NCBI GenBank assembly: GCA_030280995.1
Contig: JASXTE010000008.1
Location: 16,662,212 to 16,726,211, forward strand
Direction: 5' to 3'
From: Hemileia vastatrix
Lineage: Eukaryota > Basidiomycota > Pucciniomycetes > Pucciniales > Zaghouaniaceae
Length of the DNA: 64,000 nt
The translations under genes and the position numbers were made by a program. The notes below the pieces were generated by a model. That model did no database searches. It was not told the DNA's origin and saw only the letters and a list, made by a program, of their open reading frames with translations. The stretch's first letter is position 1, and every line of letters begins with the position of its first letter. This document shows, piece by piece, positions 27,720 through 54,612 of the stretch.

Positions 27720-27726
27720 TCTTAAT

Positions 27727-28806: not shown

Positions 28807-28850
28807 CCACAATTAATTTATTTGCTGATCGGTCAGCATTGATACCCCCT
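28807..28850. mobile_element. Harbinger H2 right terminus (type 2)
   Basis: CAATTAATTTATTTGCTGAT followed by CAGCATTGATACCCCCT is the reverse complement of the left end of H4 (52141-52190), with few differences. It completes H2, whose preceding sequence stops at 15954. The base triplet AAT follows at 28851-28853. The left end of H2 is not preserved. Confidence 0.8.
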
Positions 28851-29250
28851 AATAAAACTTTAGGTAGATCAAAAAAGTATGGGAATTTTTAGAGTCACCA
28901 AATATTTGTTTTTCTTTCATTAATTTTTAATAAATTAATCTGATATTTCAATTTACTAAGCTAAAGTGATTGGCCAAAGACATTTGTGTTGTATAAATGG
29001 TGATCATGACAAAATCAAATTGTTTCATGGGGTTCCTCTAGCCTATACCTGTGGAAAGTCCCAAACTTAGTTTCTAGACTTGATCTCCATTTTGGCTTGA
29101 GGAATTGTCATTACTTCAAAACTATTAAATTTTACATATCTTATTTATTTATTAGTTTATGTAATTATACTAATTTTTGTTGACTTGCACCCCTTACTTC
29201 AATAAGATGCAGGGGAGGGTATTGCCAAATTTTTTAAACAGATAAAAAGT
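28851..29250 (+). pseudogene. Dioxygenase tail and 3' block of H1
   Basis: 28857-28892 reads as the last codons of the dioxygenase (GRSKKYG), continuing directly into the conserved 3' block (28985-29115) and a single minisatellite unit with CTTCAATAAGATGCAGGGG (29176-29240). The upstream gene body is missing, removed together with the left end of H2. The stretch 29270-29488 has an open minus frame (starting MPNGWGMTLIV) that I do not recognise. Confidence 0.6.
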
Positions 29251-29500
29251 TTTGTTGACTTAGCTGTATTTAGAAATGCAAATTGATAGTGAGGTGATAA
29301 AAGTATGTTGGTGATGAGGATGGTGAAGAGATAGAAATTAAGATGGTGGTGAAGAGTCGATGAGGGTTTTGCACAGGTGTAAGTATTATCTCACCATCTA
29401 AAAATCCTAAAGTTAAATATTTTAGAGTCCAGTAAGGACAAATGTTGTTATCAGTAACTATTAAAGTCATTCCCCAGCCATTAGGCAAAAAATCAATGAA

Positions 29501-30581
29501 TCAATTAAAAAAGTCAAGTAATTTTTAATGTTCTCATAATATTGGTGATTTTTTACACATTCCATAATAATTTTTTTTAATTTTCTTGCTTTTACAAATC
29601 ACGAATTGCCATTTCTCTTTGAAAATCACAGTCTTTTGTTTTCTCTGAGAAAATATGACCTCTTTCAATCTCCTCAGCATTGAATCTGGCCTTTTAAAAA
29701 TTTGATTGAAGCAAAAAAAATTTCCTTCAAATCTAAGGCCTGTTGATCTTTCATTAGCATATGATCAAACTTCATCTTCTCAAAGTCAATGGCATTTTTT
29801 GAAATAGAGGATTTTGATGAGAAAATTGAATAGAAATAATAAATAAATATTTTATAGAAAAGATATATGGTGAACAATTCTTACTTATATCTTTTTTCTC
29901 AAAATAATCATCAAGGGAGCCCAAAGAGCTGGTTGAAGTATTACCACGTTTTAAAAGATGGTTCAAGTTCATTGAAGTTGAGGCTTGACACTTTAGCTTG
30001 GAGTTTGAGATAGAGGGTTCAGGTAGTTCATCTAAAGCAGCTTCCAAAGCAGGATTCTCATTTCCAGAATTGTTAATATTTTTTGAAATTTTTGTTTGAG
30101 TAGGAGGAGACTAGAAAAAAAAGAATGATAAATTTAGAAAAGAATTGAATAAAGAAGAAAAAGTAAAAATACATCAAAAAATTGGGGCTCTGAGGACTCA
30201 GATATGCTCAGAAATAATTGTTCTTCTTGATAGTCAGGATCATCTTCAGCTGAACTATGGTGAGAGGCTTCAATGTATTTATGTCCTTGAAGGAAAGGTG
30301 TGTCTAGAGGATTATTGGATGGTTGAGATCCAGAGGCTATATCCTTAGTAGTATTGTGTAGAAACCAAGGGTTGACATCAACTTGGGAACAAAAAAAATA
30401 TCCATATGCTCATAGAGAGGACACATGACATTGAGCCTTTTGGAAACAGTAGTAATTACATTCTTCAAATCATTATCATCAATTTCAAAGCCAGTGGAAG
30501 TGGAAGAAAAATGAGCCTTTTTATACTTTGATTGGTAAATTTTTAACCTGCCTTTTGAGTCTTGTATTTTCCAGGAGGCAT
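29501..30581 (-). pseudogene. SANT-like accessory pseudogene of H1
   Basis: ATG at 30581 (MPPGKYK), then an internal deletion near 30550 that removed the SANT-like domain. The remaining part keeps YQSKYKKAH and STGFEIDDNDL (30337-30530), an intron remnant, the domain with ALDELPEPS, STSMNLNHLL and SLGSLDDYFEKKD (29890-30047), and the coiled-coil end near the stop at 29501-29503. Compared with 42234-43550 it lacks about 300 bp. It lies next to the right terminus of H1, as in H3. Confidence 0.65.
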
Positions 30582-30947
30582 TATGAAGCTGGTATGTTAT
30601 AGGAAAAGATACTAAGAGGTTGAAAACATTAAAAAAACAAGGGAAAAAACATGCCTGGTTAAAATGTTGCAATAAAATGTTTCAAATTTCAGTGAGGGGT
30701 GTGTACCAAGGATTGATGAGGGGATGGTGGTCTGGGTGTCACATGTGACAGGAGCAGGGTGGGCAAGGAAGGCATAATGTGGACAAAATGTGGTTGTGAA
30801 AAAAAAATCTGTAAGAAAGTGCTGACTTGAGGTCATAACTGACACCCATTTTTGAAATAAGTGACTTTTTTTGCAAAATTTAAGTGCTGATTTGCTTTGA
30901 AATCCACACTTAAGTTAAGTGTGGATTTGCCAAAACTGATACTCTTT

Positions 30948-31296
30948 AATATCATTGTGATAGTAGTTGAATTTATAGTAATATATATTGGGCTATTATT
31001 GTTTCCTTCCTTTTCTTAATAATCAATTTTGAATCAATTCTAAATCCTTTAAATTATTTCCCTTGATTGTTAAGTCATCAACCCTTTGTGAGAATTCTTG
31101 GAATATTAGTATCACCTTGAAATCCATATTAATATTCCCCTCAAACATATCTCAAAGAAGGATAAGTTCCTTCAACATATCTTTGGACCACTTCTTAAAG
31201 GTATTCCTCTGTACCTCAAAGAAGTTTTGAGCTTACCTTTACAGTCTCACTTACTCAGGAACACCCTCAACCCTGTGCATAAGTTGTCCAGTGGCA
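30948..31296 (+). mobile_element. Solo LTR S1, right part
   Basis: Continues 8435-8865. CAACCCTTTGTGAGA and GGAACACCCTCAACCCTGTG match the solo LTR at 48033-48828. It ends GTGGCA at 31296, followed by AAGTC (31297-31301), identical to the duplication at 8430-8434. Confidence 0.8.
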
Positions 31297-36224: not shown

Positions 36225-36346
36225 GCTTGTGAAGGCTCTTAGCACATATACAACTAATCCTGGAAAGCTTGCGGTTGTCTTGCCTCTCATTCCCCACCAA
36301 ATGTGTAGGTCATCTGACCTAAACTTATGGTTTTGGCAAGGGAAGG
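36225..36346. repeat. Host duplication unit 1, left half, with Retro2 TSD
   Basis: GAGGCTTGTGAAGGCTCTTAG to GGCAAGGGAAGG matches 60936-61060. The last five bases GAAGG (36342-36346) are the Retro2 target duplication; the second copy is at 60760-60764, where the unit continues. Confidence 0.85.
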
Positions 36347-37726
36347 TTTCAGCCTGGATATACCCAGGACTGAGTAAAAATTACTTATAAGTTATGCTAA
36401 ACATATGGACTATACATGGGAACAATAAATTAAAGTACACAAGTTGCATACATAAGTAAAAATTATAATAAAATACAATATATGCCATTGTAACACCTTA
36501 TATACACACATATATCCACATTTTATAAGTCTTATGTACTTAATATTAAGTTGGAATATGTTAGGGTAATCTTAAGAACCTTAAATATAAGGCTATATAA
36601 TTTTTAAGTAGATTTAAAGCTGTTGTTTTCATTGTTTTATGTAAAAAATCAATAAATGCGCTTTGACAGATAAATTTGTTTTAATTAGAGCTATTGATTT
36701 AACTACTCATATGCATAAAAAAACACTATTCAATTTTGGTGTTTTTTATGCCAGAAATGGCTTCTGTGTACTGGCCACATACTGCCTGCATTTTTCCCAT
36801 ATGAATAGCTTCATTTTTAGCAAAGTAAGCTTTTTCACACTATAATTACCCCCACCATTCTACACCCACTGTGGGGAAACATGCTAAAATAGGAAACAGG
36901 TGCTTATTTAGTGTCCTCATTTAATTATAGGTGCATTGAACCTTATTATATGCACTAATTTCATTAATAAGCTCAAGCTTGGTGCTTTAATTCACTAACA
37001 TGCTTAAATTTGCCTAAATTAGTCAAGACTTTACCTGTGCAAGCACCTGCCAAGGACTGCATGTAGTTACCCCACATCTCATGCCCTTTTTTGGGTTTTT
37101 AAGTGGTTTCTCAGTCAATTTTGGTTATTTTTGAATGGTGATTTCACGTAGTACAATGTCATGATTAGCCCCATAATTTCTACTTTTAATCCCCCTTAAT
37201 ATTGTGTAATGATTAGTCTTAATTTTCCCTTTCTAGTCTTTTATTTTAATGTATTACACACATATACTCTCTTTTTTGCTTATTCTTTATTTTTGATGGA
37301 ATATCCCTATTACTGCAGGATTTTGGCAGTTGATATCATTCTAATTATGTTACTGGTCACTCTTTATCTTGTTGGTCATGTCTATTAGTTGGAATGAGGC
37401 GTCATTAACCATGTATATAGCTGGTAAAACAAGGGGTTTATTGGGGAAGTTATTAGGGGGTGTCAGTTCTGGCAAATCCGCACTTAAATAAGTGCGTATT
37501 TCCAAAACACACTAGCCCCAATACTGGTGGACTGCAAAATGAAATAAGTCACTTATTTCACTCAAATCCGCACTTTCTAAACCAAAAGTGCTGATTTCAC
37601 CATCAAGTCCCATTTCACTGAATTGTCAGCATCATCCCATTCATACGCAGCACTCCGCAGAACAACACTTCATAACTCAAAACATCGTACATCATTTACA
37701 TCTTCATATCATATCATATAAGAGTT

Positions 37727-38986
37727 ATGCCTTCCTCACTTTCAAATCGTGATAAATTACATAAAGCAATGACTTTCATGGCTCTTGAACTGCTCTTTGA
37801 CTCTGATTCCGATTCTGATCTAGAAAAAGATTTTGTCATTTTATCAAAAATGGCCACGAAACGTTACCTTCTTCCCAGAAAGCCTCAAGTACTTCATACT
37901 CCCAAGTACACCATCCAAACACTTCTTAACCTATCTACACCCAGTTTTAGACAGCTGTTCAGGACTTCTCAGGAATGTTTCCTTAAATTGCTTGAGCTTA
38001 TTCAGGATCATCCCATATTTCACAATAATTCTCAAAAAGAACAAAGACATCCTTCAATTCAATTGGACATCACACTATGTTGTTTGGGTTCAAATGGTAA
38101 TGGAGCCGCTTTGAAATGTTTAGAAAATGTCTTTGATTTAGGGTATGGTTCAGTTAACACTTATACCAAACAATGTATCACTGCCATCAACTCCTTGGAA
38201 TCTCAACTTCTCACCTGGCCAACAAAAGAAGAGCGACTTGAATCATCTCAGGTTATGCAAGCAGAGGGCTTCCCAGGATGTATTGGTTTTGTTGATGGTA
38301 CTACTATTCCTTTGAGCCAGAAACCTGCTCAAGGTGGAAACAATTACTTTGACCATAAAAAGAGGTAGATTATTTTTAACTCCTGTCATTCTCTTTGAAA
38401 GTAACACAAACAAACATATCTTCTTTCTAGATATTCAATTAACGTTCAGCTTATATGTGACGTAAACAAAAAATTTATATCATTCTTTGCTGGCTATCCT
38501 GGCTCATGTCATGGCTCCTACGTCTTCCAAAGAATGTAAATTTCAAATGAACCTGAAAAATTCTTTGATGAAGATCAGTATCTTCTTGCAGATTCTGCTT
38601 ATGTGAATTGAAAGTATGTACTTCCTGCTTTTTGGGGAGCAGCTTCAGAAGACAGTCAAAATGCCAAATTCAACAATCATTTGGCAAAGTCAAGAGTCCG
38701 TATTGAACATTCTATTGGAATCTTTAAAGGCCGTTTCTTTATTTTAAGGGAATTAAGAAGTCCTCTTAGTAATAAATCTGAAATGGAGGCGGTGATCAAC
38801 TGGATTCTGTGTTGCACTATACTTCATAACCTACTTGCTGACCTCAAAGATCAATGGTTAGAGCTGTATGAAGATGAACAAGTTGATTCACCTCCGACTA
38901 TATCCAACACTTCTATTTCTCAATCAACTAGTATAAGGGCGAAAATTCTTCCAATAACACTCCAACATTTTTCAATGCAATTTTAA
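37727..38986 (+). pseudogene. PIF/Harbinger DDE transposase of H3
   Basis: Exon 1 starts at 37727 (MPSSLSNRDKLHKAMTF) and ends at KKR; an intron (about 38367-38430, GTAGAT...TTTCTAG) leads to YSINVQLICDVNKKF. The DDE domain shows GCIGFVDGTTIPLSQ (first Asp), YLLADSAY (second Asp, about 38580-38605) and VRIEHSIGIFKGRF (Glu, about 38700-38740), then the family end ILCCTILHNLLADLKDQW and a stop at 38986. Nonsense changes are seen after FQRM (TAA) and in the codon before KYVLPAF (TGA), so the copy is inactive though otherwise complete. Length would be about 390 residues, typical of PIF transposases. It cuts and joins the element, usually together with a SANT-domain partner. Confidence 0.88.
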
Positions 38987-39429
38987 TTTTTTTTTCTTTC
39001 TCTTCAAATGATCAATTTGCATGTGTTATTCACTGAGAATGGTAAATTTTTTTGCATATTTTTTTGGTTTTTGAATTTGCTGTTAAAGTCTTATTTTTTT
39101 TTCTCTCTGTGTTTTCTTTCATCAACTCAACATGAAATCGCATATTTTCAGCAAACACATATTTTTTCAGTCACTCTCTTTTTTTCTTCACTCATATCCC
39201 TTTTCTCCTCTCTTCCTACATCACTCAATCAATTTCACTTATATTTCTTTTTTCTCAACTCATCTCTCCAGGTAAGTCATTTTTTTTTACTTAATTTTTT
39301 GCTAATTCTTTTTTTTTTTTGGTTTTTTGGTTTTTTGTTTTTTTTTTTTTTTTTTTTTTGTAAGTGGTTGTTTTTATATTTATAGGTAAAATTAACCTTT
39401 TTTTTTTCTCTCTCTCTCTCTCCCTCTTT

Positions 39430-40110
39430 TCTCTCTTTATCCCCCCTTGGCCTGGGATTTTTCCCACCTTTACCCTTTCCTTTGAATAGATACATCCCCC
39501 TTTTCCCCCCTTTGGCTGCCTTATTCCCCCCTCCTTGGCTCACTCTAACCTCCCTTTTCTCCCTCTTTGGTCTCATCTCTCCCTTTCTCCCCCTTGTTGG
39601 TCTCCTCATTTCCTCCCCTCATTCCACTCCACCCCCCACCAAATCCCCCAAATCCCCCCACAAAATCCCCTCCAAACCTGCCTCTAACCCCCCCTCCTAT
39701 CCCCCTCAAAACACCCCCAAATCCACCCTCAAATCCCTCCTACCCCCCCCTTAAACATCACTTAACGATTGGAGGTATTGGGGGGGTTTGGAGGGGGATT
39801 TGGAGGGGGATTTGGAGGGGGGTTAGGGGGGGTTAGGGGGGGCTAAAAGAGGTGGTTTGGAGGGGGCGAAAAGAGGTGGATTGAAGGGGGTGTTGGGGAT
39901 GGGGGTTGCAGGGGGTTTGGAGGGGGATTTGCAGGGGGGTTTGGAGGGGGGTTTGGAGGGTGATTTGGAGGTGGAATTGAAGGGGGGATTTGGGGGATTT
40001 GGAGGGGGGATTTGGGGGATTTTGTGGGGGGTAGAGGGGGGGTTTTACAAGGGTTTTGGGGAGGTGGGAGAGGGGTTTGGAGAGGGGAATTTAGGGGAAT
40101 GGGGAAGTGA
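39430..40110. repeat. C-run/G-run switch region of H3
   Basis: The top strand is dominated by CT/CCCC blocks at 39430-39752 and, after a short link (CATCACTTAACGATTGGAGG), by GGGG blocks at 39773-40110, with a TTTGGAGGGGG repeat. The two halves are partly complementary. Proline- or glycine-rich open frames here follow from composition and are not genes. 38987-39429 and 40111-40325 hold no gene. Confidence 0.85.
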
Positions 40111-40325
40111 TAAAAAAATTTAACAGTTTTTTGATTTTTTTTTTTTTTGATTTTTGATTTTTTTTTTAATTTTAGAGAAAAATATTCATCAAGTTCAAGT
40201 GAAATAAAAAAAATTCTTATTATTCATTTTAGGATTTTTATTTTTTAATTTAAATTAAGTGAGTTTTTTTTAAATGTATAATTTTGGGTGATTGAAAAGT
40301 AACAAATTTTTAAGTAGAAAAATAC

Positions 40326-41516
40326 ATGTCTTTAACTTCAGATTCACCACTTACCTCACTCTCATCTTCTTTAACTTCATTATCATCTTCAAATTCAACT
40401 TCTTTTCAATCATCATCTAAAACATTGACAAAAAATGAACAGTATCAAAATAAAAGAAATTTAAAAAAGGAAATTCACTTGGATCAAATATTTGGCCATA
40501 TTTCAAAAATCAAGTACTATAAAACTAAAGTTGAAAAAAAAAATCCAAAAATGTTACCTGAAAATATACATTATTTAACTGAAACTGGAGGTGATGAAGT
40601 TAAAGCTGTTATTAATAATAGTTTCAAACCTCAACTTATTTACAAAAACCTTTCTTTTAATGGTTTAAAAGATGAATCATTTAATCAACTCTGTGATCTC
40701 ATCATAACACTCTATCAAATGGCTTTGGTTCACTTATCTTTAAGGAATAAGAATTTTTTGGGTGGAATCATGATTGGAATTGGATAGAGACCAGGATTTG
40801 AAAAAGGTTTTTCTCTTGGTATGTTTAAAAACTTTTCTTGATTTTTTAATATCATTTTACTGAATTTAATTCAAATAGGCATATATTTTCTTTACTCAGA
40901 TCTTTATCTAAAGCTGAATTAGATAATGATTTTCAAAAATGGAATACATTACCTTCATTTAATTCATTTCTTGCTCTTTGACTTAAAAAACTCTTCAATA
41001 AAGCTTTTGAAAAAAATCATGAAGTTGCTACAAGACTTGGAATACCAAATTGGTGCGACTCTGAATGGGAAGATATTAGCAGTGATTATCTAATGTTTTC
41101 AAATGTTATAATCACTCATTCTGGACTTCATAACCAAATTCACACCAACTCAAATGATGCCAACTACCTCACTTATGGAATTTTCACATATATATATTAT
41201 TCCTATCACTGGACAACCTATTCCATCACCTACAAAAATTAAAGTACATGGATTATATTTCCCAGATCGTAGATGTATAATCAAATTTGGATTAGGAAAT
41301 GGATTCATCGAAACAGTTTGGAATTCTTCTTACAATAATCACCAAACCACAAAGGCTCCTCCAGGTTTGGAATCTTGTCAAGACTTCACGCATTTCGGTT
41401 GCTCTTTCCAGATCAGTCAAAAGTTAATCCAACAAATAAACAAGTTAAAAAAAGAAGAAAAAGGTAATAAATTTAAAAATTCTTTAGGTAGATCTAAAAA
41501 GTATGGGGATTTGTAG
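40326..41516 (+). pseudogene. Tet/JBP-like 2OG-Fe(II) dioxygenase of H3
   Basis: The best preserved start: ATG 40326 with a Ser-rich tail, then IFGHISKIKYYKTKVEKKN, YQMALVHLSLRN and GGIMIGIG, where Trp of GWRPGF has become a stop (about 40786). Intron 40819-40878 (GTATGT...AAATAG). Exon 2 has LAL-stop-LKKLFNKAFEKNHE (a TGA also found in H4), NWCDSEWEDIS, QIHTNSND (His 41141-41143), a frameshift in a TA run near 41190, then HGLYFPDRRCIIKFGLGNGF, ETVWNSS, NHQTT and THFGCSFQISQKLI, ending at the stop 41514-41516. If active, such an enzyme would oxidise 5-methylcytosine using 2-oxoglutarate and Fe(II) in the nucleus. The putative iron-binding Asp is Asn here. Confidence 0.68.
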
Positions 41517-41609
41517 AGTCACCAAATATTTAATATTCTTCCATAAATTTTTAATAAATAAATATGATATTTCAATTTATGAATTTGAAGTAATGGGCCA
41601 ACAACCTTG

Positions 41610-41745
41610 TGTTGTATAAAAGGTAATCATTATAACATTAATTTGTTTCATGAGGTTCCTCTAGCCTATACCTGTGGAAAGTCCCAAACCTAGTTTCTAG
41701 ACTTGATCTGCATTTTGGCATGAGGAATTGTCATTACTTTAAAAG
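41610..41745 (+). other. Conserved 3' block of H3
   Basis: The same ~130-bp sequence as at 13622-13770: CCTATACCTGTGGAAAGTCC through GAATTGTCATTAC, about 100 bp after the dioxygenase stop. Frame reads VSRLDLHFGMRNCHYFK. Confidence 0.6.
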
Positions 41746-41804
41746 TAGTAAATTTGACATATCTTATTTATATATTAATTAATTTATGTAATTATATTAA
41801 ATTT

Positions 41805-41980
41805 TGATGACTTTCACCCTTTACTTCAATAAAATGCAGGGGAGGGTATTGCCAATTTTTTAAATCTGACATGTGAAATTGATGACTTAGAAAAATTTGG
41901 TGGTACCCACCCCTTGTTTCAATAAAATGCAGGGGAGGGTATTGCCAAATTTTCAAAAGAGATATTGAATTTTATTGACT
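41805..41980 (+). repeat. Minisatellite with poly(A) signals in H3, 2 units
   Basis: Two units with CTTCAATAAAATGCAGGGGA and GGGTATTGCC, located between the convergent dioxygenase and SANT-like genes. 41981-42233 is AT-rich with a short direct repeat (GCAAACTTA.TGACTTGAA.GT twice) and no gene. Confidence 0.7.
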
Positions 41981-42233
41981 TAGAAGTATTTAGATAAGCA
42001 AACTTACTGACTTGAAAGTAAAGATAGAAAATTTTTATTATTTTTTCAAATTTTTGTCAAAATAAAAGTATAAGCAAACTTATTGACTTGAATGTAAAGA
42101 TAGAAAAAATGTATGATATTTTCAAAAATTTGTCAAAAATAATGTACTATATTCAAGACCTTTTATAAGTCAGCATATAAGAAAATATTACCAAAAAGAA
42201 ATAAAACAAAATTAAATTAACTAGAAAAACAAT

Positions 42234-43550
42234 TTATCGATTGAAAAGGTCAAGTAATTTTTTAATGTTCTCATAAGATTGGCCATTTTTTACACATTCC
42301 ATAATGAAATATTTTTTTTAAAACTCTCTTGTTTTTCCAATTCACAAGTAGCCATTTCTCTTTGAAATTTATGGTCATTTACTCTTTCCATCTGCTCTGC
42401 CTCAAATTATTTTTCTTCCAAATCTAAGGCTTGCTGATCTTTACTTACCATATGATCAAACTTCATCTTCTCAAAGTCAAGGGCATTTTTCGCAATAGTT
42501 GCTTTTGCTGAGAAAATTAAATTGAAATAAATAAATAAATGAGTTAATGATTAAGATATATAGTAAATGAATCTTACTTATATCTTTTTTTTTAAAATAA
42601 TCCTCAAGGGAGCCAAATGAGCTTGTTGAAGAATTACCACATTTTAATAGATGGTTCAAGTTCATTGAAGTTGAGGCTCGATGCTTTAGTTTGGAGTTTG
42701 AACAAGAGGCTTCAGGAAGTTCATCTAAAGCAGCTTCTAAAGTGGGATTCACATTTCCAGAATTGAGATTATTTAATGGAGATTGAGTTTGAGTAGGAGG
42801 AGACTAGAAAGAAAGAGAAATTCAGAGAAGAATTGAAGAAAAAACAAAAAGTAAACATACATTTAAATTTTGGGCCTCTGAGGATTCAGATCTGCTGCGA
42901 TATAATTGTTCTGCTTGATAGTCAGGATCATCTTCAGCTGAACTATGGTTAGAAGGTGGAGGGGATTGATCCTGTTGATGTACAGGTATTTCAGGAGGAT
43001 TAATTGATGGTTGAGATCCAGAGGGTATATTCTTAGTAGTATCATGTAGAAACCAAGGGTTTACATCAACTCGGGAGCCAAAAAGATTATCCATTTCCTC
43101 ATAGAAAGGACACATGACATTGAGCTTTTTGGAAACAGTAGTAATTCCAATCTCCAAATCATCATTGTCAATACCAAAGCCAGTTTCATTTGCAGCATGA
43201 TGAGCCTTTTTATATTTTGATTGGTAACTCTTAAATCTCTCCTTCATTTGTTTAGGATTGATATTGATTCTCCCCCTTGTTTTCTTCCTTACTTAATTGG
43301 CCATCAATAAGTAGCCATTAACCTTTGAAGAAGGTGGACCTCCAATACGAGTGGACTTTTCACATCCAAAACATGCTTCAAAATTTGATTTTATTTTAAG
43401 GAAGTTGATTATGATGAGATAATCATCCTTTTTAAGCTGACCTGAACCTGCCTTTGATTTTTCAGGTGTATGGCTTGCTTTACAAGGAGAATTTTGTGAC
43501 AAAGCAGATTTTTGAGTTACCTTTTTAGATTTGGAATGTCTAGGAGGCAT
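42234..43550 (-). pseudogene. SANT-like/coiled-coil accessory protein of H3
   Basis: ATG at 43550 (MPPRHSKSKKVTQ) is chosen because sister genes start with MPPR/MPH at this point. Basic N-terminus, SANT-like segment QLKKDDYLIIINFLKIKSNF, TRIGGPPSSKVNGYLLMAN, a stop at 43293-43295, NPKQMKERFKSYQSKYKKAH, TGFGIDNDDL and a conserved MCPFYEEMDNLFG. An acidic Ser/Pro region precedes an intron (about 42806-42862, GTATGT...CTAG). Then come ALDELPEASCSNSKLKH, SFGSLEDYFKKKD, another intron, and a charged coiled coil with one more stop, ending LLDLFNR-stop at 42234. Its likely role is to bind the element ends and bring in the transposase, as Myb/SANT-like proteins do for Harbinger elements. Confidence 0.7.
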
Positions 43551-44848
43551 TATGAAACTGGAAAATAACAAGAAAAAAGATTAAGAGGTAGAAGAAATAA
43601 GTAAAAAAGAATGTAAACATGCCTGGTCAAAATGTTGAAAATGTCAGGAAGGGGTGTGTGCCAAGGATTGATGGGTAGGTAGCGAGGAAGGTCAGTGTGT
43701 CACATGTGACAGGGATGAGGTAAGAAAGAAAGGGATGTTTTGTGGCCAACATGTGGTTGTGAAAAAAACAGGAAAAAAGTGCTGATTTGAGGTCATAACT
43801 GACACCCATTTTTGAAATAAGTGACTTTTTTGCAAAATTTAAGTGCTGATTTGTAAGTGCTGATTTGGTTTGAAATCCACACTTAAGTTAAGTGCAGATT
43901 TTCCAGAACTGACACCCCCTAATTGTATAAAAGGAGGGGATTTTCGGTCTTGTTTTCTACATTCTTATCATTACAATCAAACATATAACCAATACAAATT
44001 ACAATACATATCAATAGTACTTATAAATTCTTTGAATAGTATCTGAATTATAAAATCTATTTTTCAACCAACTATAATATTGTAAGCCATATATAATTAG
44101 AGAGATTTTAAATTACTGAGATCCTTATATTGAGTGATATTTTAATACTTATTGGATTTGTACTACAGTATCCATACAGGACCATATAAATCTTCTAGAA
44201 AAATGACCATTCAAGCTAGTTCATGTCTCTGTACTTGATCTCAACCTGAAAATTGGGGACCTTTCCTCAAGAATTCTGTTGGTTATCTTCCAGTAAGTAA
44301 AAACTCAAAAAGAGGCTACAAGTAAATAAAATCCTTATAGAAATATTTGGATAATTACAAAAGGTTGGGGTCACTTATATAGTGATTTCAGAAAAAGAAG
44401 CCCTGTTATATAATAAAATTGTGATATTGAATCAACAATTTTACCACTAATTTAACATAAAATTGTTCTTAGTGGGAGTCTGTCAATAGACCAATTAATT
44501 TTGTGACCTTTGCAGATAATAAAACAGATAATATAAACTGATTAATTTTTTTCTTTTAAACAGGACTCTTAATCCCTTTTTATAGGTTTATAAAACTCAT
44601 TTAATATTTAGAAAGAATATTACTGACAAATTTTCTTTTTTAAATATAAAACACAGCTACATATTGTAGACCAGTTAAATCAAGTGACCACATAAAAGCA
44701 TATTTGAATTTTGGCACTTATAAATTCACTTAATACCAACAAGTAAGCAATAAAATTGTCTCCAGTAGTATTTATTAATACTGATAAAACTCCTTTTGAA
44801 GTTTTAATATTTCAATTTTCAATTTTTTGATTTTAATTCCATGTAAAA

Positions 44849-46655
44849 ATGTGTGAAAACAACAATGATATTGTGAGTAATAAGGCAAAACCTTATAACT
44901 TAAAACCTAGAGTTGAAAGACCTGTTACAGGACGTTCAAATAGAGGGCAAGGATTCTCCCACCAACAGCAACACTCCACAGATGTCTCTGGAGGAAAGGG
45001 AAAGACTTTTAAAACAAGTATCAATAAAGAAAACAAAAAATACTTTGCAAGAACAAACTCACTCCCTATCCACTCTTATAAACACCCTAACAATAAGAGT
45101 GAACAATATAGTAGACCAGATGAACAATCTGGAGGAAAGAACAGAACAGGATTTCATAGAAGTAAACCAGGCTCTAGTGGAAATAAAAGTTCAACCAACA
45201 ACAGTTGCAACCAACAATTCCACGGTGGTAACAGCCACACCTCCAGCCAAAGAGGAGGACCAAAAGATTACAGTAAGCAAATGGAAATGTGACTGGTATT
45301 CCCAAAAATACAACAACTCTGCACAGCAGGGCTCCAGCAGTCACCCTTGCAGGGGAAAGGCAAGGAGAGGCAGGGGAAATGGAATAAGACATTGGTAAGT
45401 CATCCATCTTCTCATGATCAATTATATAATACTAAAAATGAATTACTTATAAGTAATGAGATTTCTAGGGAGTTAATGGATATAATTGATAAAGATTTAA
45501 AAAATTATTCATTTGAAAAAAAGCGTGTTAAACTTTTCTTTACATGATGACAATGTACATAGTTTTATTGATCACCAGGATAACACTAGTCACATTAAAA
45601 TGGAACCAAATGAAGTAAATCTTGAGACTGATTATGAGTCTTCTGAATTGGACACAGAAAAAATTGAATATTTTTTAAAAGAGAATCCAATGGAATCAAA
45701 AATCATTAGCAAATTGTTATTAAGAATTGAAATATTGGAAGAATTCTCTAGAGAGTCAAACAATAATACAGAAAGTGTATTATTAAACCTCACCTGATCA
45801 TTGAGTACCACAGCCAATAAATTAAAGATCATTGAAAATTCAAATAATGAATTAGTCAATGAAAATAAAAGATTAAACTCTGAGATTAAGAGTTTACAAG
45901 ATAAATTAGAACATTCTCAAAATATTATCGCAACCATTTAGGGACATGTAAAATTGTCTTTTTCAAATGTGAATGATACTTTAACTCATGTAACTTTAAT
46001 AAAGGATAGGTTAAAAAGAGTAGAAATTGAAATAGCTAACATTTTGAAAAATACTGATAAATTAAAGGACAATACCTCCTATGTGGAAAGAGTACCAGTT
46101 TCTATCAAACACTCAGATGATAAAACAATGATCGAACATAAAAATAGTTTCATGGGCTCTGAGAATATAAAATCAGTAAAGGATTAAAAAAATGATCATC
46201 TTTCTAAAGTAAGTCAATTACTTAATATTTCTCAGGTTAGGGAAGCAAAAACTAACCAAAAGAACTGGCCTAAGTTAGATCAGTACTTTTATTTTGACAG
46301 GGATTCAAAGTCAGATTGGCAACAATTCATTCAAAGAATTGATAAATTGAAATTTTCATACAAATTACCTGATGAAGAAATTACATCAGAACTGATATCT
46401 TTATTTACAGATGTGGCCTTATTATGGTTTGAATCTGTATTGAGTGAGGGAATTAACTACTCCTGGAATGAATGGAAGGCACTAATTGAAAGGCAATTTG
46501 GTGGCCCAAAATTTAAAATCACTCAACAAAGATTGTATGAGAAAACTAGATATAATCCAAATGCTGGAGATAAACCCATGGTATTTTTAATGAATTTAAT
46601 AAAAATCATGAAAGCCATGGATCCAAAAATGGATTATGATGAGTGGAAAGAGTAA
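44849..46655 (+). pseudogene. Retro2 gag
   Basis: Begins at ATG 44849 (MCENNNDIVSNKAKPYNLKP), shifts frame near 44975 into a coiled-coil part (SLEERERLLKQVSIKK, LINTLTIRVNNIVDQMNNLE), and continues through two further frames with long helical stretches (45513-46187, LRIEILEEFSRESNNN and others). The capsid domain is at 46260-46655: WPKLDQYFYFDRDSKSDWQQ, ALLWFESVLSEGINYSWNEW and ERQFGGPKFKITQQRLYEKT, typical of the retrotransposon gag family. Stops at 45785, 45940, 46186 and 46653 show decay. The coiled-coil N-terminus is longer than usual for gypsy elements. Confidence 0.75.
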
Positions 46656-46832
46656 ATAATATACAAGTTGCCTATATCAGTTAGAGACATTATTGTAGCT
46701 AGAACTGAAACCATCAGAGATTACTCTGGGTTTATTAATATATGCAATGAAATATTATTAAACCACAAATATGATACCAAGTATAATAATTAAAAACAAA
46801 GTGTTGATGTAGTAAAACCTGCTACAAGTAAA

Positions 46833-47312
46833 TTGCCTGTGGAGAAGAAAAAACCTTCAGCTCCCCTTGTCCCTAAAAGAAAAGAAAGTAACACTTGCTA
46901 CAGATGTAATGAGCCTTGGGCTAAAGGTCATACTTGTAAGAAAAGAATAAATGTTATTGAAAACTCACAAGATTCTGAACCAAGTAATCATGAAGATGAA
47001 AATGAGGAATCTAGTGAGGATTGTAAAAGTAACATTTCTTACAGTGATGATGAAAATGAGATATATGTATTAGAACAGGATATTATGTTCCTGAATGATG
47101 CTATACCTCAGACAGATACATCTTTAACTTCCATTGAAGAAGATGAAATAATTAAAGATGTATCTCATGATACTTACAAAATAACACCTATTAGAGAACC
47201 TGTTATTATATGTGGAAAAGAAATGAATTCCATTCTTGACACTGGGGCTGCAGGTAGTGTAGTTTCTATTAACACATTAATGAAACTTGATAGTAAGAAT
47301 AAAAAAAACTAG
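46833..47312 (+). pseudogene. Retro2 zinc knuckle and aspartic protease
   Basis: NTCYRCNEPWAKGHTCKKR (46885-46945) is a CCHC knuckle with CX2CX7HXC spacing, which packages RNA. An acidic linker follows. CGKEMNSILDTGAAGSVVS (about 47212-47268) is the retropepsin motif with Asp-Thr-Gly-Ala. A frameshift near 47310 interrupts the domain; its remainder (IGNDLLTKFGIKIYP-like, about 47475-47515) is in another frame. Confidence 0.85.
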
Positions 47313-47543
47313 AACCTGTACAGACAAGGAGCTGGAGGGGTTTTGGCTCAGTATTAAATCCAATTGGCAAATACAAAACTGCTGTATTCTTTAAATATAA
47401 TATTTGATATGTAAGAGTAGTTTTTGAATTTGTAGTAATGGATAATAATAATTGTAGTGATTGTTTTATTATTGGAAATGACTTATTGACCAAATTCGGC
47501 ATCAAAATATATCCTGCCAATAGTTGCTTCACCATATGAGTAA

Positions 47544-49163
47544 ATGGGAAAGGAAAATTCAGTTTATTCCATTGCTCCTAAAGAAGAACAACTGCAAGGT
47601 GGAAGAGCCACCTCTGAAGTGGTAGAATTGGAAAATGAAATCCAAAAAGCCTCTTTCAGTCCTCAACTCTCAAAAATTGAAGAAAATAATATTTTGGGAT
47701 TGATAAAATCTTATCCTATGGAATTTGCTCATGGTTCAAATGAACTAGGATGGGTCAAAGACCATGAGATAAAAATCTCTTTAAGTTGTGATTTGGAATA
47801 TATTCCTGGCAGCTTGAAAAAGAAACCTTACCCAGCTTCTCCTGCAAAAAGGAAAGACATTGAAGACAAAATTAAAATTTTGTTAGAAATGGGTATTGTT
47901 GAAAAGGTGGACACAACACCTAAGTATTGTGTTATTTCAACAGTTTTAATCTCTTATGAAAAGGATAAGGCAAGATTATCTGGTGATTACAGAGCTCTGA
48001 ATACATTCACTGTAGATGATATTTACCCTATATGTCACACTCCATGTGACACTCGAGGCAAAAGCAGCTCATTAAATCAATAATAAAGAGGTCTAAATCC
48101 ATATTTGAAGTGCAGAAAGTGATTCTACATAGCAACTGCAACTTTCCTTTGTGTACTCACTATTCAACCACGCTAATCTAAAATTTAAATCTAAATTAGT
48201 TAATCTCTCAATAGTGTGTTTAGTCTATTCCTCAATAAGCAATGCACAGCGCAAAAGTCAATGCAATATTCCGCTAAAAGGTTTATTAAGTGTCTGTGGG
48301 TTATTATCAGGGGTAGTGAGCATGGACGGGATGGTTAGTGGAGGTTCAAAGAGTTAACGGATGTTAGTGAGGAGGTTTCAGGTGTAACAAGTGTATTTTT
48401 GGAGGTCTGTGGTGTGTGGAATGATGGATGGGTATGAGGTCAATGCAAGGAGGAGTAGTGGATATAAAAAGGATTGGATTTTGGTTTGACATTCTTTAGA
48501 ATAAAATTATAAAACGTATATATAGTTAATAGTGGTAAAACTTCAGGTTAAATCATTATTATTGTACATTTCCTTATTTTCTCAGTAATCATTTCTAAAA
48601 CTTAAATCTTTGATTATTGAGTTTACAACCCTTTGTGAGATCCTAAGAATTTTAATATTACCTTTAAATTATATTGAGATTCTTATTTAACATATCTCAA
48701 AGAAGCAGCTCTTCCTTCAAATCACTTCCTCAAACATTTCCTCTGTACTTTGGAGAAGTTTCTAAACTCCTCCCTCCATCTCACTTTCAGGAACACCCTC
48801 GACCTTGTGCGTAAGTCGTCCGGTGACACTCTACCAAGGATATCTTCTATACATGCTATCTTAAAAGGTGCAAAATATATTTCCTGTCTGGATGGAAACA
48901 AAGGTTACCACCAGATCCCTGTGGAAAAGAATTCTCATAATTTCTTACTCATAACCACACACATGGGGATATATAAATATGTGAGAATGCCTTTTGGCCC
49001 AAAGAATGCACCTTCAGTCTTCCAAAAATTGATGGATAGTGTTTTCCATCAGGAAATGGTTCAAGGATGGCTTTTAGTTTATATTGATGACATCATAGTG
49101 TTTTCAAAAACATATGATGAAAATTTAATTCACCTGAAAAGAGTATTTCAAAAAAATGGATGA
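47544..49163 (+). pseudogene. Retro2 reverse transcriptase, split by a solo LTR
   Basis: The N-terminal part (47544-48027) has LLEMGIVEKVDTTPKYC, LSGDYRALNTFTVDDIYP. At 48033-48828 a solo LTR interrupts; the frame resumes with LPRISSIHAILKGAKYISCL (48830 on), then DGNKGYHQIPVEKN (first Asp), MPFGPKNAPSVFQKLMD and VYIDDIIVFSK (49078-49110), the intact YxDD box. It ends in a 1-base overlap/shift at about 49156 into the RNase H part. Motif order and sequence are standard for chromodomain gypsy elements. Confidence 0.88.
48033..48828 (+). mobile_element. Solo LTR S3 in Retro2 reverse transcriptase
   Basis: TGTCACACTCCATGTGACAC at the start, GTCCGGTGACA at the end, 796 bp, TATA-like GATATAAAAAGG at about 48457-48468. 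The flanking 5-bp copies are CTATA (48028-48032) and CTCTA (48829-48833); removing the insert and one copy restores the codons for IYPLPR. It is the complete reference for the split copy S1. Confidence 0.9.
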
Positions 49164-49984
49164 AATTAATATGATGATTGAATTAAAGAAATGTAAGTTT
49201 GGGTTTCAATCCTTGAAAGTACTTGGACATGTTATATCTGGATTACAAATTTGTGTTGACCAGAAAAAAGTGGCAGCAATAAAAAAAATTAGTATACCTA
49301 AGAATGTGAAAGATGTTCAAAGTTTTTTAGGTATGTGTGGATATTATAGGCAGTATATAAAAAACTACCAATCTGTTTCAGCTCCTTTAACAACATTAAT
49401 CAGGAAAAATGAGGGTTTCATTTGGAATAATGAAAGACAGAATGCCTTTGATAAATTGAAGGAATTTTTAATGTCAGCTCCAATATTGGGACTTCCAGAT
49501 TTTAACCTCCCTTTTATCTTGTATACTGATGCATGCTTCACCGGGTTATGTGCTGCTTTACAGCAAAAGTAGATAATAAATGATAAATAATGTGATATAT
49601 ATCCAGAACCTTAAGAAAGACAGAATTAAGGTAAGTTGCCACCCAACTGAAATGTTCAGCCATTTTAGGGGCCCTGGAGAAACTTCATTACTATCTGGAA
49701 GACCAGAAGTTTGAATTAATAACAGATTTCAGTGCAGTGAAATCATTACTAAACATGAAAACACCTAATAGGCACATGTTTAGATGGAACTTAGCTGTAC
49801 AAGAGTACAGAGGAAAAATGACAATCATGCATAGAGCAGGAATGTAACATTATAATGTGGATTTATTATCCATAAGCCCTTTGCCAAATGATACTGACAA
49901 CCCAGCTTATGTACCTAAATATGAGGTAATACATATATTTGGGATTTATATAGTGGATTTAGAGGAAGAATTTATGCAAACTAT
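49156..49984 (+). pseudogene. Retro2 RT thumb and RNase H
   Basis: KKCKFGFQSLKVLGHVISGL, then DVQSFLGMCGYYRQYIKNYQ (RT thumb/connection), NAFDKLKEFLMSAPILGLPD and the RNase H start LYTDACFTGLCAALQQK. A stop follows at 49570. Shifted frames carry on the RNase H domain (about 49660-49860: FSAILGALEKLHYYLEDQKF, then SAVKSLLNMKTPNRHMFRW). The MITE at 49985 ends the continuity. Confidence 0.8.
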
Positions 49985-50234
49985 CACCACACAATATGGG
50001 GGGCGGACTTGCTAGTGAGTCTGCAACCTTGGACCCAAACTCACCACAGATTAAACACACATTGAGCTATTGATAAAGGAGCCATACAATCAGGGATGAA
50101 CACCACTCAGAAGAACAGTTTTAGGTGGGTGTTCAAGTAAAGTTCAGTATGAGTTCAGTATGAGTTCAGTCTGAGTTCCATCTGAGTTCAGGTTGAGGAC
50201 TTGCTAGCAAGTCCACCCCCTATATTGTGTAGTG
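49985..50234. mobile_element. 250-bp MITE, copy 2 (inverted)
   Basis: Ends CACCACACAATATGGGGGGC and, on the right, CCCCCTATATTGTGTAGTG, flanked by TAT at 49982-49984 and 50235-50237. It has the same length as the copy at 1037-1286 and is in the opposite orientation. A short repeat GAGTTCAGTATGAGTTCAGT lies inside. Confidence 0.88.
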
Positions 50235-50369
50235 TATATTGGAAAATTATTCATCTGATAAAGATTTTTCTAAATTATCTACAATTTTAAATGATCTAAC
50301 TAATGCCTCTATGAGTGCATTAATTAAAACCCTACCTCCAAAGTTTAAAACTGCATTGGAAAAGGTAAA

Positions 50370-51250
50370 TTGTCAATTGAAGACAGATACATATATTACA
50401 GGAAAAAGCTAAGAAATTTAATAGTTATACCACCTTCAATGAAAGAGTTAATGTTAAGTACTTGTCATGATGACATTTTAGCTGGTCATTTTAATTTAAA
50501 GAAAACATTAACTAGAGTTAAGAATACAGCCTGGTGGATAAACATGAAAGAAGATGTAAAAAAATACATTGAAACATGTGACTCTTTTCAGAAATATAAA
50601 ATATTAACTGGAAAGAGAGCTGGGTTGTTACAAAAAATAGAGCATCCAAAAGCTCCATAGGAAATTATAAAAATGGATTTTGTCACTGGCTTTCCATTAG
50701 CAGGAAAATAAAGTTTCAATTCTTGCTCAGTAATTGTAGATAGATTAACAAAAATGTGTAAATTTATCCCTACCCATAAAGAGGTATCTGAAAAGGACTT
50801 GTAATTACTATGGTAGAATCAAATGATGAATACTGCTGGGTTTCCCAAAGCCTTAATCTCTGAAAGAGACCCTAAATTTACTTCAGAGTTCTGGACATCT
50901 TTGATGGAAGTATCAGGTTGCCAATTGAAATTGTCTACAGCACATCATCCACAAACTGATGGGCTGGCTGAGAGAATGATACAGAAACTGGAAGATATGA
51001 TCAGAAGATATTGTGCCTTTGGATTAGATTACAAAGACAATGAGAAATTTCACACATGACTGGGTAACATAAATTCCTGGCCTTGAATTTGCTAATAATA
51101 GCACAACTCATTCTGTAACAGAGAAAAAACCATTTGAACTCTGGCTGGGATATGTACCAAATACCCCAGTAAATCATTTAAATAAATTACCAAGGTTAGA
51201 TATACACCCTGGTACTAAATCCTTTATTCATATGCAACAAATGTGTAGAA
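50370..51250 (+). pseudogene. Retro2 integrase
   Basis: Zinc-binding N-terminus: STCHDDILAGHFNLKKTL, AWWINMKEDVKKYIETC and DSFQKYK, where the second Cys of the pair is Ser. The core begins MDFVTGFPLAG (first Asp, about 50670), with VIVDRLTKMCKFIPTH; then ALISERDPKFTSEFW (second Asp, about 50860-50890) and TAHHPQTDGLAERM (Glu, about 50940-50975). Stops at 50658, 50709, 50801 and 51057 interrupt it. It is continued by a segment with KPFELWLGYVPNTP (about 51125-51170). Confidence 0.85.
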
Positions 51251-51253
51251 AGC

Positions 51254-51773
51254 ATGCAGAAGAATACATCCAAAGAGAACTTGAAGATGAAAGAAAAGAA
51301 AAGGTGGGATAAATCTCATAAAGAATTTGAATTCAAAAAGGGAGATGAAGTCCTAATATCAACACTACATTTTAACTTACAAGGTAATGTTAAATTGAAG
51401 GATCCCTTTGTAGGACCTTTTGTAGTCAACAAAATGGTTGAAAATAATGCTGTGGAAGTCATATTATATGCCCCATATGATAGGAAACATCCAGTTTTCC
51501 CTATCTCATTATTAAAACCTTACCATGCAAATGATCCTGACTTATTTCTAAAAAGAAGAGGAAGGCCTAAAAAGCAACCTGAAGAAATTGTGGAAAAAGT
51601 AGAAATTGAAAAAATACTCAAGAATAGAATCCTTACTAAAGAGAAAGGAAATTGAGTATTTATTAAGATTTAAGGGGAAATCAAATGAATTTGATAAATG
51701 GATACCTGAAAAAGAAATTTCAAATCTATCCTCCCTTCTTAAAAAATTTAAACAGAAATCAATTTCTGTTTAA
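51254..51773 (+). pseudogene. Retro2 integrase C-terminus with chromodomain
   Basis: FKKGDEVLISTLHFNLQ and KLKDPFVGPFVVNKMVENNA are the small beta-barrel part. A basic stretch KRRGRPKKQPEE follows, then VEKVEIEKILKNR and, after a 1-base shift near 51653, YLLRFKGKSNEFDKWIPEKE, the core of a chromodomain (aromatic, KGK..xxxxW.P). Chromodomains direct integration to heterochromatin in this clade. Stop at 51771-51773. 51774-51942 has no gene; a purine-rich GGGTGGGCAAG just before the 3' LTR may be the polypurine tract. Confidence 0.8.
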
Positions 51774-52506
51774 CCAGCTGAGGGGCTCAAAACCAGTACT
51801 CAAAATATTTTATTATGTTTCATTTCTTTAAAGAAATCATCTTTAATGCGACAGAATTTTCTAAAAGCCTGAAAAAGAAAAATAAAGTAAAAAAAAGTGT
51901 ATAACTTATCATTTTTTTAATTGTTTTTTTTGGGTGGGCAAGTGTCAGCCTGGATATCCCCATGACTGATTAAAAAGTACTTATAAGTTATTTTAAACAT
52001 ATGAACTATACATGGGAACAATAAATTAAAGTACACAAGTTGCATACATAAGTAAAAATTATGATAAAATACAATATATGCCATTATAACACCTTATATA
52101 CACATATATATCCACCTTTTATAAGTCTTACGTACTTAATAGGGGGTATCAATGTTCATGGATCAGCAATTAAATTAATTGCGGATAAAAATCCTTATAC
52201 CCCAATTATCTTCCGCAATTATTTTTGCTAATAATTGGGTTATTAGACACTTTACGTGTCAATGTTCACCTCTTATACGACATTTTTTTACTCAATTTTT
52301 CATAACCACATCTTGGACAACCTTCTGTCATAACCACATCTTGACCTACTTTCTGCCATAACCACATCTTGGACTACTCCCTGGATATGCCTTCTACCTT
52401 GCTGCGCACTTCCATTCTCATCCCATCCTGTTCATTCTATCTGCTCAGAGCCCCTCACCATCTCATCTGCTTGTTTCTGCTCCTTTTAATCTTCATTTAT
52501 AATAAC

Positions 52507-53855
52507 ATGCCTTGTCATCCTAGATCTTCTCAAAGGCAGCCATCACCCAGTTGTTCTTCAATTCCCACTACTTCCTCTTTCCCCCGCTCAGCCAAGAAAT
52601 CAAAGAACGTTCAATTAAAAAAAGATGACCATCTCATTCTTATCAACTGGCTGAAAACCAAATCTAACTATGATTCTTGTTTTGGTACTGAGTATGCCAC
52701 TAAAGTAGGACGGCCCCCGCATCAAAAGTTAATGGCTATCTTCTAATGGCAAATGAATTACGCAATAAGACCTAGGGAAGGATTAATCTTTTGCCTAAAC
52801 AGATGTCTGAATGCTTCAAGTATTACCGAGCAAAATACAGGAAGGCAAAGGCTCTTTCATCTTCCACTGGTTTTGGGATTACCAACAACAATATAACTAA
52901 GGGCATAAAATCCATAGACAATAAACTTGATTCTTTATGTCCTTACTTTAAAGAGATGGATGCAATTTTTGGAGAGTGAGCCGATGTTAATCCTGTAAAC
53001 ATGTTGGATGGTGAAGATCCTATCTTTGAACATGATGTCGAAGCAAATCTTTTCCCATCCTCTTCCTCCACTCAAACCTCCCCTCATTTGAATGAGACAT
53101 ATCTAGATAGCTTTTAGGTAGATCCTATAGGTGATTTAACCCAACCAAATCTAACTCAGGTCTGTTTCTTTTTTCTTTTATCTTATCATTTCTATTTTTT
53201 ATTTACTTATCTTTTTCTTATTTCTTAAAAGGCTGATGAACAAACCCAGGATCCTCAATCAACTGAGTCTGAAGCTAGTGAAAATGATGAGGAGGAAAAT
53301 GCTACGTTGAAAAAAAAGCAAAGGGCTTCAAGTAGTCTAAATTTCCTCTCCCAAAGAAGACAAAAAAGTGATACTTCATGACAAACACCTTTTTCTTTGA
53401 TGGAACAGTTTTTAGAGACATGTGATGCTGGTAAGTGATACCATACCTCTTATTACTTTACTCTACTTTTCTTCCACTTTATATTAATTTTTATTATCAC
53501 TCTAGAACAAGTGGAAATTGCTAAAGAGACTCTAAGCTTTGAAAAGAAGAAATAAGAGCTCTCTTTAAGGAGGGATGACAGAGTACAAGATTTGGAAGAG
53601 AGGAAGTACGAGCTCTCCTTACGGAAGGATGATCGGGTCCAAGATTTGGAGGAGAAGAAGTTTGAGTTAACTCTTAGTATTGAAAAATCCAAAAAAGAGG
53701 AAAAAACACTCGAGCATCAAAACTTAATGGAACAGATGAAGTATAAGCATGATCTTCAAGAAAGTTTTAAAAAGAAAGATTTCTTGATCGAATGCATTAA
53801 AGCAAAAAAATCTGTTGAAGAAATAGAACATTTAATGAAATTTTTTTTTGACTAG
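52507..53855 (+). pseudogene. SANT-like/coiled-coil accessory protein of H4
   Basis: ATG 52507 (MPCHPRSSQRQPSPS). QLKKDDHLILINWLKTKSNY and TEYATKVGRPP are followed by a frameshift at about 52722. The reading continues with LPKQMSECFKYYRAKYRKAK, STGFGITNNNITKGIKSI and YFKEMDAIFGE, then a stop where the relatives have Lys/Arg. An acidic exon lies after an intron at 53160-53231. A second intron is at about 53431-53504 (GTAAGT...CTAG). The coiled coil has two to three copies of an 18-residue repeat (consensus YELSLRKDDRVQDLEEKK), against four in H2, and ends KKSVEEIEHLMKFFFD at 53855. Probably the DNA-binding partner of the transposase. Confidence 0.68.
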
Positions 53856-53989
53856 TTTCTTTTATTTCTTTCACACTTCATGTGTTCATATTTATTTGTA
53901 CATAAATTTTACAATTATTTTCTGTATTTCTTGAAATTTTGTATTTTAATGTTAAATATTCTTTTTTTAAATAAAATTTTCAAGTCTCC

Positions 53990-54420: not shown

Positions 54421-54479
54421 TAATATAATTACATAAATTATTAAATAAATATCTAATATATATCAATTTCCCTAGTTTA

Positions 54480-54612
54480 AAGTAATGACAATTCCCCAAG
54501 CCAAAATGCAGACCAAGTCGAGAAACAAAAGTTTGGGACTTTCCACAGGTATAGGCAAGAGGAACCCCATGAAACAAATAAATGTTATCATGATTACCTG
54601 TTATAAAACACA
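54480..54612 (-). other. Conserved 3' block of H4
   Basis: Inverted copy of the ~130-bp block; core CCTATACCTGTGGAAAGTCC on the minus strand. Here one frame stays open through the block (LAYTCGKSQTFVSRLGLHFG, then NCHYFK), because the TAG present in the other three copies is TTG. Confidence 0.6.

What the first reader, a model, noticed from the sequence alone, without database searches (positions are those of the whole stretch)
37455..43920. Harbinger-type transposons that carry a Tet/JBP-like DNA dioxygenase and a SANT-like gene
Seen: H3 (37455-43920) and H4 (52141-59510) have matching inverted ends and empty sites, and contain the same three genes in the same order and orientations. Remnants of the set occur at 1526-5836, 9580-15954 and 28851-30581. 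Known: Tet/JBP expansions in fungi have been linked to KDZ-type transposons (work of Iyer, Aravind and colleagues, 2014, as I recall it). Here the carrier has a PIF/Harbinger DDE transposase instead. Inference: the element may bring its own 5-methylcytosine oxidase to escape silencing.
Basis: partly seen in the sequence, partly recalled or inferred. Interest (0 to 1): 0.88.

Follow-up and report, generated by a model that had tools for sequence, protein, structure and literature searches.

The report
Rust transposons carrying a Tet-like dioxygenase
These are decayed copies of a recently described kind of rust-fungus jumping gene that carries its own Tet-like DNA-oxidising enzyme, probably to escape silencing; the kind is already in print, but these copies add signs of past selection on the enzyme and a conserved hairpin behind its gene.

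Summary
H3 and H4 (6.5 and 7.4 kb) have 36-nt inverted ends (94%, 89%) and sit in the two long terminal repeats of one retrotransposon, so each repeat shows the other's empty site. Both carry a DDE_Tnp_4 transposase, a Tet-like 2OG-Fe(II) oxygenase (PF20515, E 5e-20 in H4) and a third gene, in the same order and orientations. The central claim is already published: Kojima 2025 (PMC12730594) calls TET-carrying Harbinger elements with TA target sites PHISTA, in Puccinia and Austropuccinia psidii, and proposes escape from methylation silencing. TA flanks 7 of 8 ends here. Added here: low dN/dS of the oxygenase (0.07-0.16, C-terminal part), signs that the gene and about 450 bp behind it moved as a block between subfamilies, and a 76-nt hairpin conserved in 4 of 4 copies. 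The third protein has only sub-threshold Myb/SANT matches. Every oxygenase copy seen is broken, and 3 of 4 have Asn where 6 of 6 outside relatives have the iron-ligand Asp. Both structure predictions failed (pLDDT 44.5, 39.0). The genome-wide test was not run: 17 requests did not complete. No methylation data were examined.

The parts
37453..43922 (+). Element H3, PHISTA-like, H3-type ends
   Evidence: inverted ends and empty site
37676..38986 (+). H3 transposase gene, broken (pieces 37676-38368 and 38612-38986)
   Evidence: PF13359 on 38612-38986, E 2e-9; 63% identical to H4 piece, with stops
40327..41516 (+). H3 Tet-like oxygenase gene, broken
   Evidence: PF20515 on the 41112-41516 piece, E 3.3e-4, below gathering score; 77-80% identical to H4 pieces
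41653..41729 (+). Conserved hairpin behind the H3 oxygenase gene
   Evidence: folds, pair counts and model search
42270..43550 (-). H3 third gene, broken; sub-threshold Myb/SANT-like match; low-coordinate limit approximate
   Evidence: PF13837 E 0.0083 on 42825-43292; homologous to H4 and E9 third gene
52139..59512 (-). Element H4, PHISTA-like, H4-type ends
   Evidence: inverted ends and empty site
52507..53850 (+). H4 third gene, broken; high-coordinate limit approximate
   Evidence: 73-75% identical to the E9 third-gene piece
54489..54566 (-). Conserved hairpin behind the H4 oxygenase gene
54707..55955 (-). H4 Tet-like oxygenase gene, broken
   Evidence: PF20515 on 54707-55234, E 4.7e-20, 72.9 bits
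58177..58917 (-). H4 transposase piece
   Evidence: PF13359 E 5.8e-14
9601..15954 (+). E9: H4-type copy without its transposase-side end; its other end lies at about 28807-28852 behind a retrotransposon
28850..30949 (+). E29: right part of an H3-type copy (3' oxygenase block, third gene)
   Evidence: 75-87% identical to H3; end at 30949
1526..5836 (-). E1: rearranged remnant with a divergent oxygenase (keeps Asp in HxD) and an H3-like third gene
36340..60757 (+). Host retrotransposon: one LTR (36340-37452 and 43923-44249) holds H3, the other (51936-52138 and 59513-60757) holds H4
   Evidence: LTR match; reverse transcriptase at 48681-49160, E 6.6e-18

Best explanation
H3, H4 and the remnants are decayed copies of at least two subfamilies of PHISTA-type (Harbinger-superfamily) DNA transposons of a rust fungus, most likely Austropuccinia psidii (species inferred, not tested). 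Shown: inverted ends, TA flanks, a DDE_Tnp_4 transposase, a Tet-like oxygenase gene in the middle, a third gene running the other way, and a codon pattern of past purifying selection on the oxygenase. Inferred: while active, the element used its oxygenase to oxidise methylated cytosine on its own DNA and so delay CpG-methylation silencing; the oxygenase gene with its 3' block passed between subfamilies as a unit; after silencing, CpG decay and small mutations broke the copies seen here.
For: Ends, empty sites, order of genes. TA at 7 of 8 ends, P about 9e-8 at window TA frequency. PF13359 and PF20515. dN/dS 0.07-0.16 in 5 of 5 comparisons among H3, H4, E9 for the C-terminal oxygenase and 0.25-0.36 in 3 of 3 for the N-terminal part; transversions concentrate at third codon positions in 3 of 3 C-terminal pairs, not in the 3' flank (0 of 3). 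Same architecture and TA sites published for rusts including A. psidii. CpG o/e 0.178 in the window, as expected of a methylating host; A. psidii papers report such decay and 5mCpG in young elements.
Against: No copy in the window has an open oxygenase gene, and 3 of 4 copies have Asn in place of the iron-ligand Asp. The copies are strongly CpG-depleted (0.275 to 0.033), so the oxygenase did not protect them in the end. Substrate unknown: 6mA, thymine or another product are not excluded (Kojima's own caveat). Third-position-free tests are weak for the N-terminal part (1 of 3 below 0.05) and third gene (0 of 3). Structure models failed. Genome-wide consistency untested.
Confidence: 0.66

Rival explanations
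1. The oxygenase is a passive passenger, picked up once and carried without benefit.
For: Every oxygenase copy in the window is broken.
Against: dN/dS 0.07-0.16 between subfamilies and third-position bias in 3 of 3 C-terminal pairs; a comparable value for the transposase (0.09, 0.13).
Confidence: 0.06
2. The oxygenase is needed for something other than lifting silencing: marking the element's ends or newly made DNA with an oxidised base so that the transposase or third protein recognises it, or altering a base other than 5mC.
For: It is kept next to the transposase under similar selection; product and substrate are untested in the PU type.
Against: No direct evidence; TET+ and TET- relatives of the same transposase lineage exist according to Kojima, so the transposase itself does not need it.
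Confidence: 0.2
3. In these subfamilies an Asn variant of the HxD motif was inherited and kept, so the protein works as a binder of modified DNA without oxidation.
For: Asn in H3, H4 and E9 (3 of 4 window copies) although they differ by dS about 0.6-1.5 and dN/dS is low.
Against: 6 of 6 outside relatives keep Asp. The change is of the kind CpG decay makes, and decay is heavy: CpG kept 10 of 36 against 777 of 1101 other C, each site counted from both sides. H3 and H4 also share a stop at a codon that is Arg in 4 of the 5 outside relatives that cover it (Trp in the fifth), again of that kind.
Confidence: 0.07

Closest known systems
TET+ PHISTA (Harbinger superfamily) of Pucciniales, Kojima 2025, PMC12730594
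   Same: Harbinger-type transposase, PU-type Tet-like oxygenase, a third gene, TA target sites, in rusts including A. psidii
   Different: Third protein here has weak Myb/SANT matches where Kojima reports none; whether H3 and H4 are among his families could not be checked (supplement not available)
Canonical PIF/Harbinger (two genes: DDE transposase and Myb/SANT protein)
   Same: DDE_Tnp_4 transposase; a second gene running the other way
   Different: Extra oxygenase gene; TA rather than 3-bp duplications
KDZ elements with TET/JBP (Iyer et al. 2014; recalled and as cited by Kojima, paper not held)
   Same: A DNA transposon carrying a TET/JBP gene in basidiomycetes
   Different: Different transposase; 8-bp duplications reported for Zisupton and Dileera

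Membership tests
PHISTA (TET+) | Harbinger-superfamily DDE transposase | tested here: met
   PF13359 E 5.8e-14 and 2e-9; no tree was made
PHISTA (TET+) | TA target-site duplication | tested here: met
   TA directly outside 7 of 8 ends; exception H3 right end; empty sites need small indels
PHISTA (TET+) | TET/JBP gene inside the terminal repeats | tested here: met
   PF20515 between the ends of H3 and H4
PHISTA (TET+) | Third protein without Myb/SANT (as Kojima states) | tested here: inconclusive
   PF13837 in 2 of 8 pieces and PF12776 in 1 of these 2, all below gathering scores; open E9 piece matches neither
TET/JBP dioxygenase | Match to the Tet-like 2OG-Fe(II) family | tested here: met
   PF20515, 72.9 and 59.3 bits against cut-off 27 in H4 and E9; H3 and E1 pieces below cut-off
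TET/JBP dioxygenase | HxD...H iron triad | tested here: not met
   Asn for Asp in H3, H4, E9; Asp only in E1; second His kept in H3 and H4. This lowers activity of these copies, not family descent
TET/JBP dioxygenase | Double-stranded beta-helix fold | tested here: inconclusive
   model mean pLDDT 39.0
TET/JBP dioxygenase | Oxidation of 5-methylcytosine | not testable with these tools
   none
Canonical Harbinger | 3-bp target duplications | tested here: not met
   TA at 7 of 8 ends; no 3-bp duplication common to H3 and H4
KDZ | KDZ-type transposase | tested here: not met
   transposase pieces match PF13359 and, weaker, PF01609 and PF04827

The most novel reading that the evidence does not exclude
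The oxygenase travels between transposon subfamilies as a cassette: the gene plus a constrained 3' block that holds a structured hairpin. The hairpin controls the oxygenase message (stability, export or translation) or is a working RNA of its own, so this anti-silencing module has a protein part and an RNA part.
Probability: 0.2. Interest if true: 0.6.

Novelty: already known. Interest (0 to 1): 0.38.

Why it matters
If the oxygenase lifts silencing, these elements are a natural test of an arms race between CpG methylation and mobile DNA in very large rust genomes, for which methylation data exist. The window adds evidence that the gene was under selection while the elements diverged, not mere cargo, and a concrete new lead, the conserved hairpin behind the gene, that can be looked for in any TET-carrying family.

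Tried and rejected
Structure predictions of the third protein (A3) and of the oxygenase domain (A4) were too poor (pLDDT 44.5 and 39.0), so no fold search was run. PDB sequence searches gave nothing meaningful (best E 0.11 to unrelated chains; 0 chains at E up to 10). Protein search with the open third-gene piece: 12 candidates, none at E up to 1; the tool's length limit probably shuts out full-length relatives. Viral contigs: 0 matches for the hairpin core (24 of its 26 bases given) and none for P0002. Rfam: 0 matches at gathering scores in the window; at E up to 1, 5 sub-threshold matches in 41400-42200, all outside the hairpin.

A selenoprotein was considered, since H3 and H4 share an in-frame TGA where E9 has Cys and a hairpin lies behind the gene. 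Rejected: Arg at this place in 4 of the 5 outside relatives that cover it, other stops and frameshifts in the same genes, and, from recall only, neither the SECIS core nor the fungal distribution of selenoproteins fits. A TCG-specific hypermutation signature was looked for: remaining TCG is not rarer than the other CpG contexts in H3 or H4, so general CpG decay fits better. Longer folds of the 3' region are mixed: z -3.5 for 221 nt of H3; -0.8, -1.9 and -1.2 for 141-146 nt of H3, H4 and E9, and +0.75 for an E29 stretch that cut off part of the hairpin; opposite strands -0.2 to -2.3. Covariation in the hairpin is slight: one compensatory pair, and 119 of 500 shuffles as high.
Full report
What is there. 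The window is a nest of transposable elements with strong CpG depletion (CpG o/e 0.178). H3 (37453-43922) and H4 (52139-59512, reverse orientation) have inverted arms of 36 nt at 94% and 89%. They lie in the two long terminal repeats of one retrotransposon, whose reverse transcriptase is at 48681-49160. Because H3 broke one repeat and H4 the other, each repeat is the empty site of the other's element. The repeats are 94.3% identical, with 34 transitions and 37 transversions, which bounds the age of both insertions.

Ends and target site. One search listed 23 matches to the two end patterns at up to 6 mismatches; I accepted 8 distinct ends that also fit the alignments. Written as TTAGGGGGTRTCA (H4's left end reads ATAGGGGG), TA lies directly outside 7 of these 8; the exception is H3's right end. 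At the window's TA frequency that has P of about 9e-8, and 8e-5 at a deliberately high frequency of 0.2. The choice of end base favours this count, so it is support, not proof. The empty sites fit a TA duplication only if small indels are allowed. In both elements the order is transposase, oxygenase in the same direction, third gene in the opposite direction.

Genes. Transposase pieces match PF13359 (E 5.8e-14 in H4, 2e-9 in H3). The oxygenase matches PF20515, 'Tet-like 2OG-Fe(II) oxygenase superfamily', with 72.9 bits in H4 and 59.3 bits in E9 (cut-off 27); the H3 and E1 pieces are below the cut-off. Protein searches found three unnamed relatives and, starting from one of those, three Puccinia proteins, all marked PF20515. 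The third protein gave only sub-threshold matches: PF13837 in 2 of 8 scanned pieces (H3, E1) and PF12776 in one of these two; the open E9 piece matched neither. Kojima states that the third proteins of TET+ Harbinger elements contain no Myb/SANT domain. I count the point as open.

Condition of the copies. Each oxygenase copy in the window is broken by stops or frameshifts. Where 6 of 6 outside relatives have Asp in the HxD iron motif, H3, H4 and E9 have Asn, and the divergent E1 piece has Asp. CpG o/e falls from 0.275 (H4) and 0.187 (H3) to 0.08 (E9) and 0.033 (E1), with GpC at 0.72-0.91. Between H3 and H4, 10 of 36 CpG are kept against 777 of 1101 other C, each site counted from both sides in turn. 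So these copies underwent methylation-type decay whatever their oxygenase once did.

Selection on the oxygenase. Among H3, H4 and E9 the C-terminal part has dN/dS 0.07-0.16 in 5 of 5 comparisons (H3 counted on either side of its frameshift), the N-terminal part 0.25-0.36 (3 of 3), the transposase 0.09 and 0.13, and the third gene 0.20-0.39 where dS could be computed (3 of 5). One row compares non-homologous transposase parts and is dropped. Rows with the rearranged E1 and with E29 are looser: oxygenase against E1 0.20-0.58 with one not computable; third gene against E1 or E29 0.13-0.84, some not computable. Synonymous rates are near saturation, so values are rough. A cruder test free of CpG transitions agrees for the C-terminal part: transversions concentrate at third codon positions in 3 of 3 pairs (P 2e-4 to 2.4e-3), against 1 of 3 pairs below 0.05 for the N-terminal part, 0 of 3 for the third gene, 1 of 2 for the transposase parts and 0 of 3 for the 3' flank. 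I read this as usefulness of the gene to the elements while they diverged.

A block that moved. H3 and H4 are 72-87% identical per 150-bp step from 40303 to 41952, but 45-78% in the transposase side and 38-65% in the third-gene side. E9 is much closer to H4 than H3 is in the transposase end and third-gene parts, yet only slightly closer in the oxygenase block (80.1% against 77.6%). The simplest reading is exchange of the oxygenase gene with about 450 bp of 3' DNA between two subfamilies. Selection on coding sequence could explain part of this, but not the noncoding 3' flank, 84-87.5% identical in 3 of 3 pairs. Tandem repeats lie near the 3' border in both elements. Kojima reports such transfers between superfamilies and saw no special structure at the borders.

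A conserved hairpin. In this 3' flank a stretch of 76-77 nt folds alike in H3, H4, E9 and E29 (z -2.7, -3.7, -4.6, -2.0). Of 100 pair cells 99 pair, against 30-46% when the partner is slid. A 26-nt core is identical in 4 of 4 copies, with 0 expected in shuffles, and a model of the hairpin finds these four and no other convincing place in the window (they are its training set). The 3' flank changes more slowly than third codon positions of the gene (transversions P 0.0014, 0.062, 0.014; transitions P below 3e-5 in 3 of 3). Covariation is slight (one compensatory pair; 119 of 500 shuffles as high), so stability and conservation carry the case. Longer stretches fold less remarkably. Rfam has no match. 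The words hairpin and UTR do not occur in the main text of PMC12730594; I made no wider literature search for the hairpin.

What is known. Kojima 2025 (PMC12730594; abstract, sections 5 and 23, part 1 of 2 of section 24, and found passages seen) describes TET/JBP genes in many fungal transposons, including 15 TET+ Harbinger families with TA duplications in six rust species, one of them A. psidii, and proposes escape from methylation silencing. The main claim of the finding is therefore in print. A search for PHISTA, transposon and TET gave only this paper; a wider search listed 7 papers with this one first. A 2026 review, seen as passages, calls the transposon-encoded TET/JBP enzymes yet to be functionally characterised. 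Papers on A. psidii, seen as passages, report 33.8% GC, CpG decay and higher 5mCpG in young elements; this and the window's composition are why I favour that species, but no test named it.

Mechanism. Shown: element structure, gene content, the mark of past selection, decay. Inferred: oxidation of methylcytosine on the element lifts silencing for a time. Not shown: activity, substrate, expression. Not tested: whether the gene is consistently between the ends genome-wide, because the genome search did not answer in 17 requests.

Noticed in passing
41653-41729 (+), 54489-54566 (-), 13675-13750 (+), 29030-29106 (+): A 76-77-nt hairpin behind the oxygenase gene, same fold in 4 of 4 copies, 26-nt invariant core, no Rfam match.
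   Followed up: yes
40303-41952 against 54226-55901: Oxygenase gene plus 3' flank is much more alike between H3 and H4 than the rest of the elements, a sign of block exchange between subfamilies.
   Followed up: partly
15955-28806: A 12.9-kb LTR retrotransposon (LTRs 94% identical; reverse transcriptase and RNase H matches), Gypsy-like by my reading, has split the E9 transposon near its end.
   Followed up: partly
39400-40100 and 56560-57400: Long C-rich then G-rich inverted stretches between transposase and oxygenase genes of H3 and H4; in H4 with a 57-nt palindrome at 56917-57038, 91%.
   Followed up: no
1526-5836: Rearranged remnant: oxygenase part inverted relative to an H3-like third gene; the one window copy with Asp in the HxD motif.
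   Followed up: partly
33803-34834 (+): An open frame of 344 codons without a significant Pfam match, possibly a host gene.
   Followed up: no
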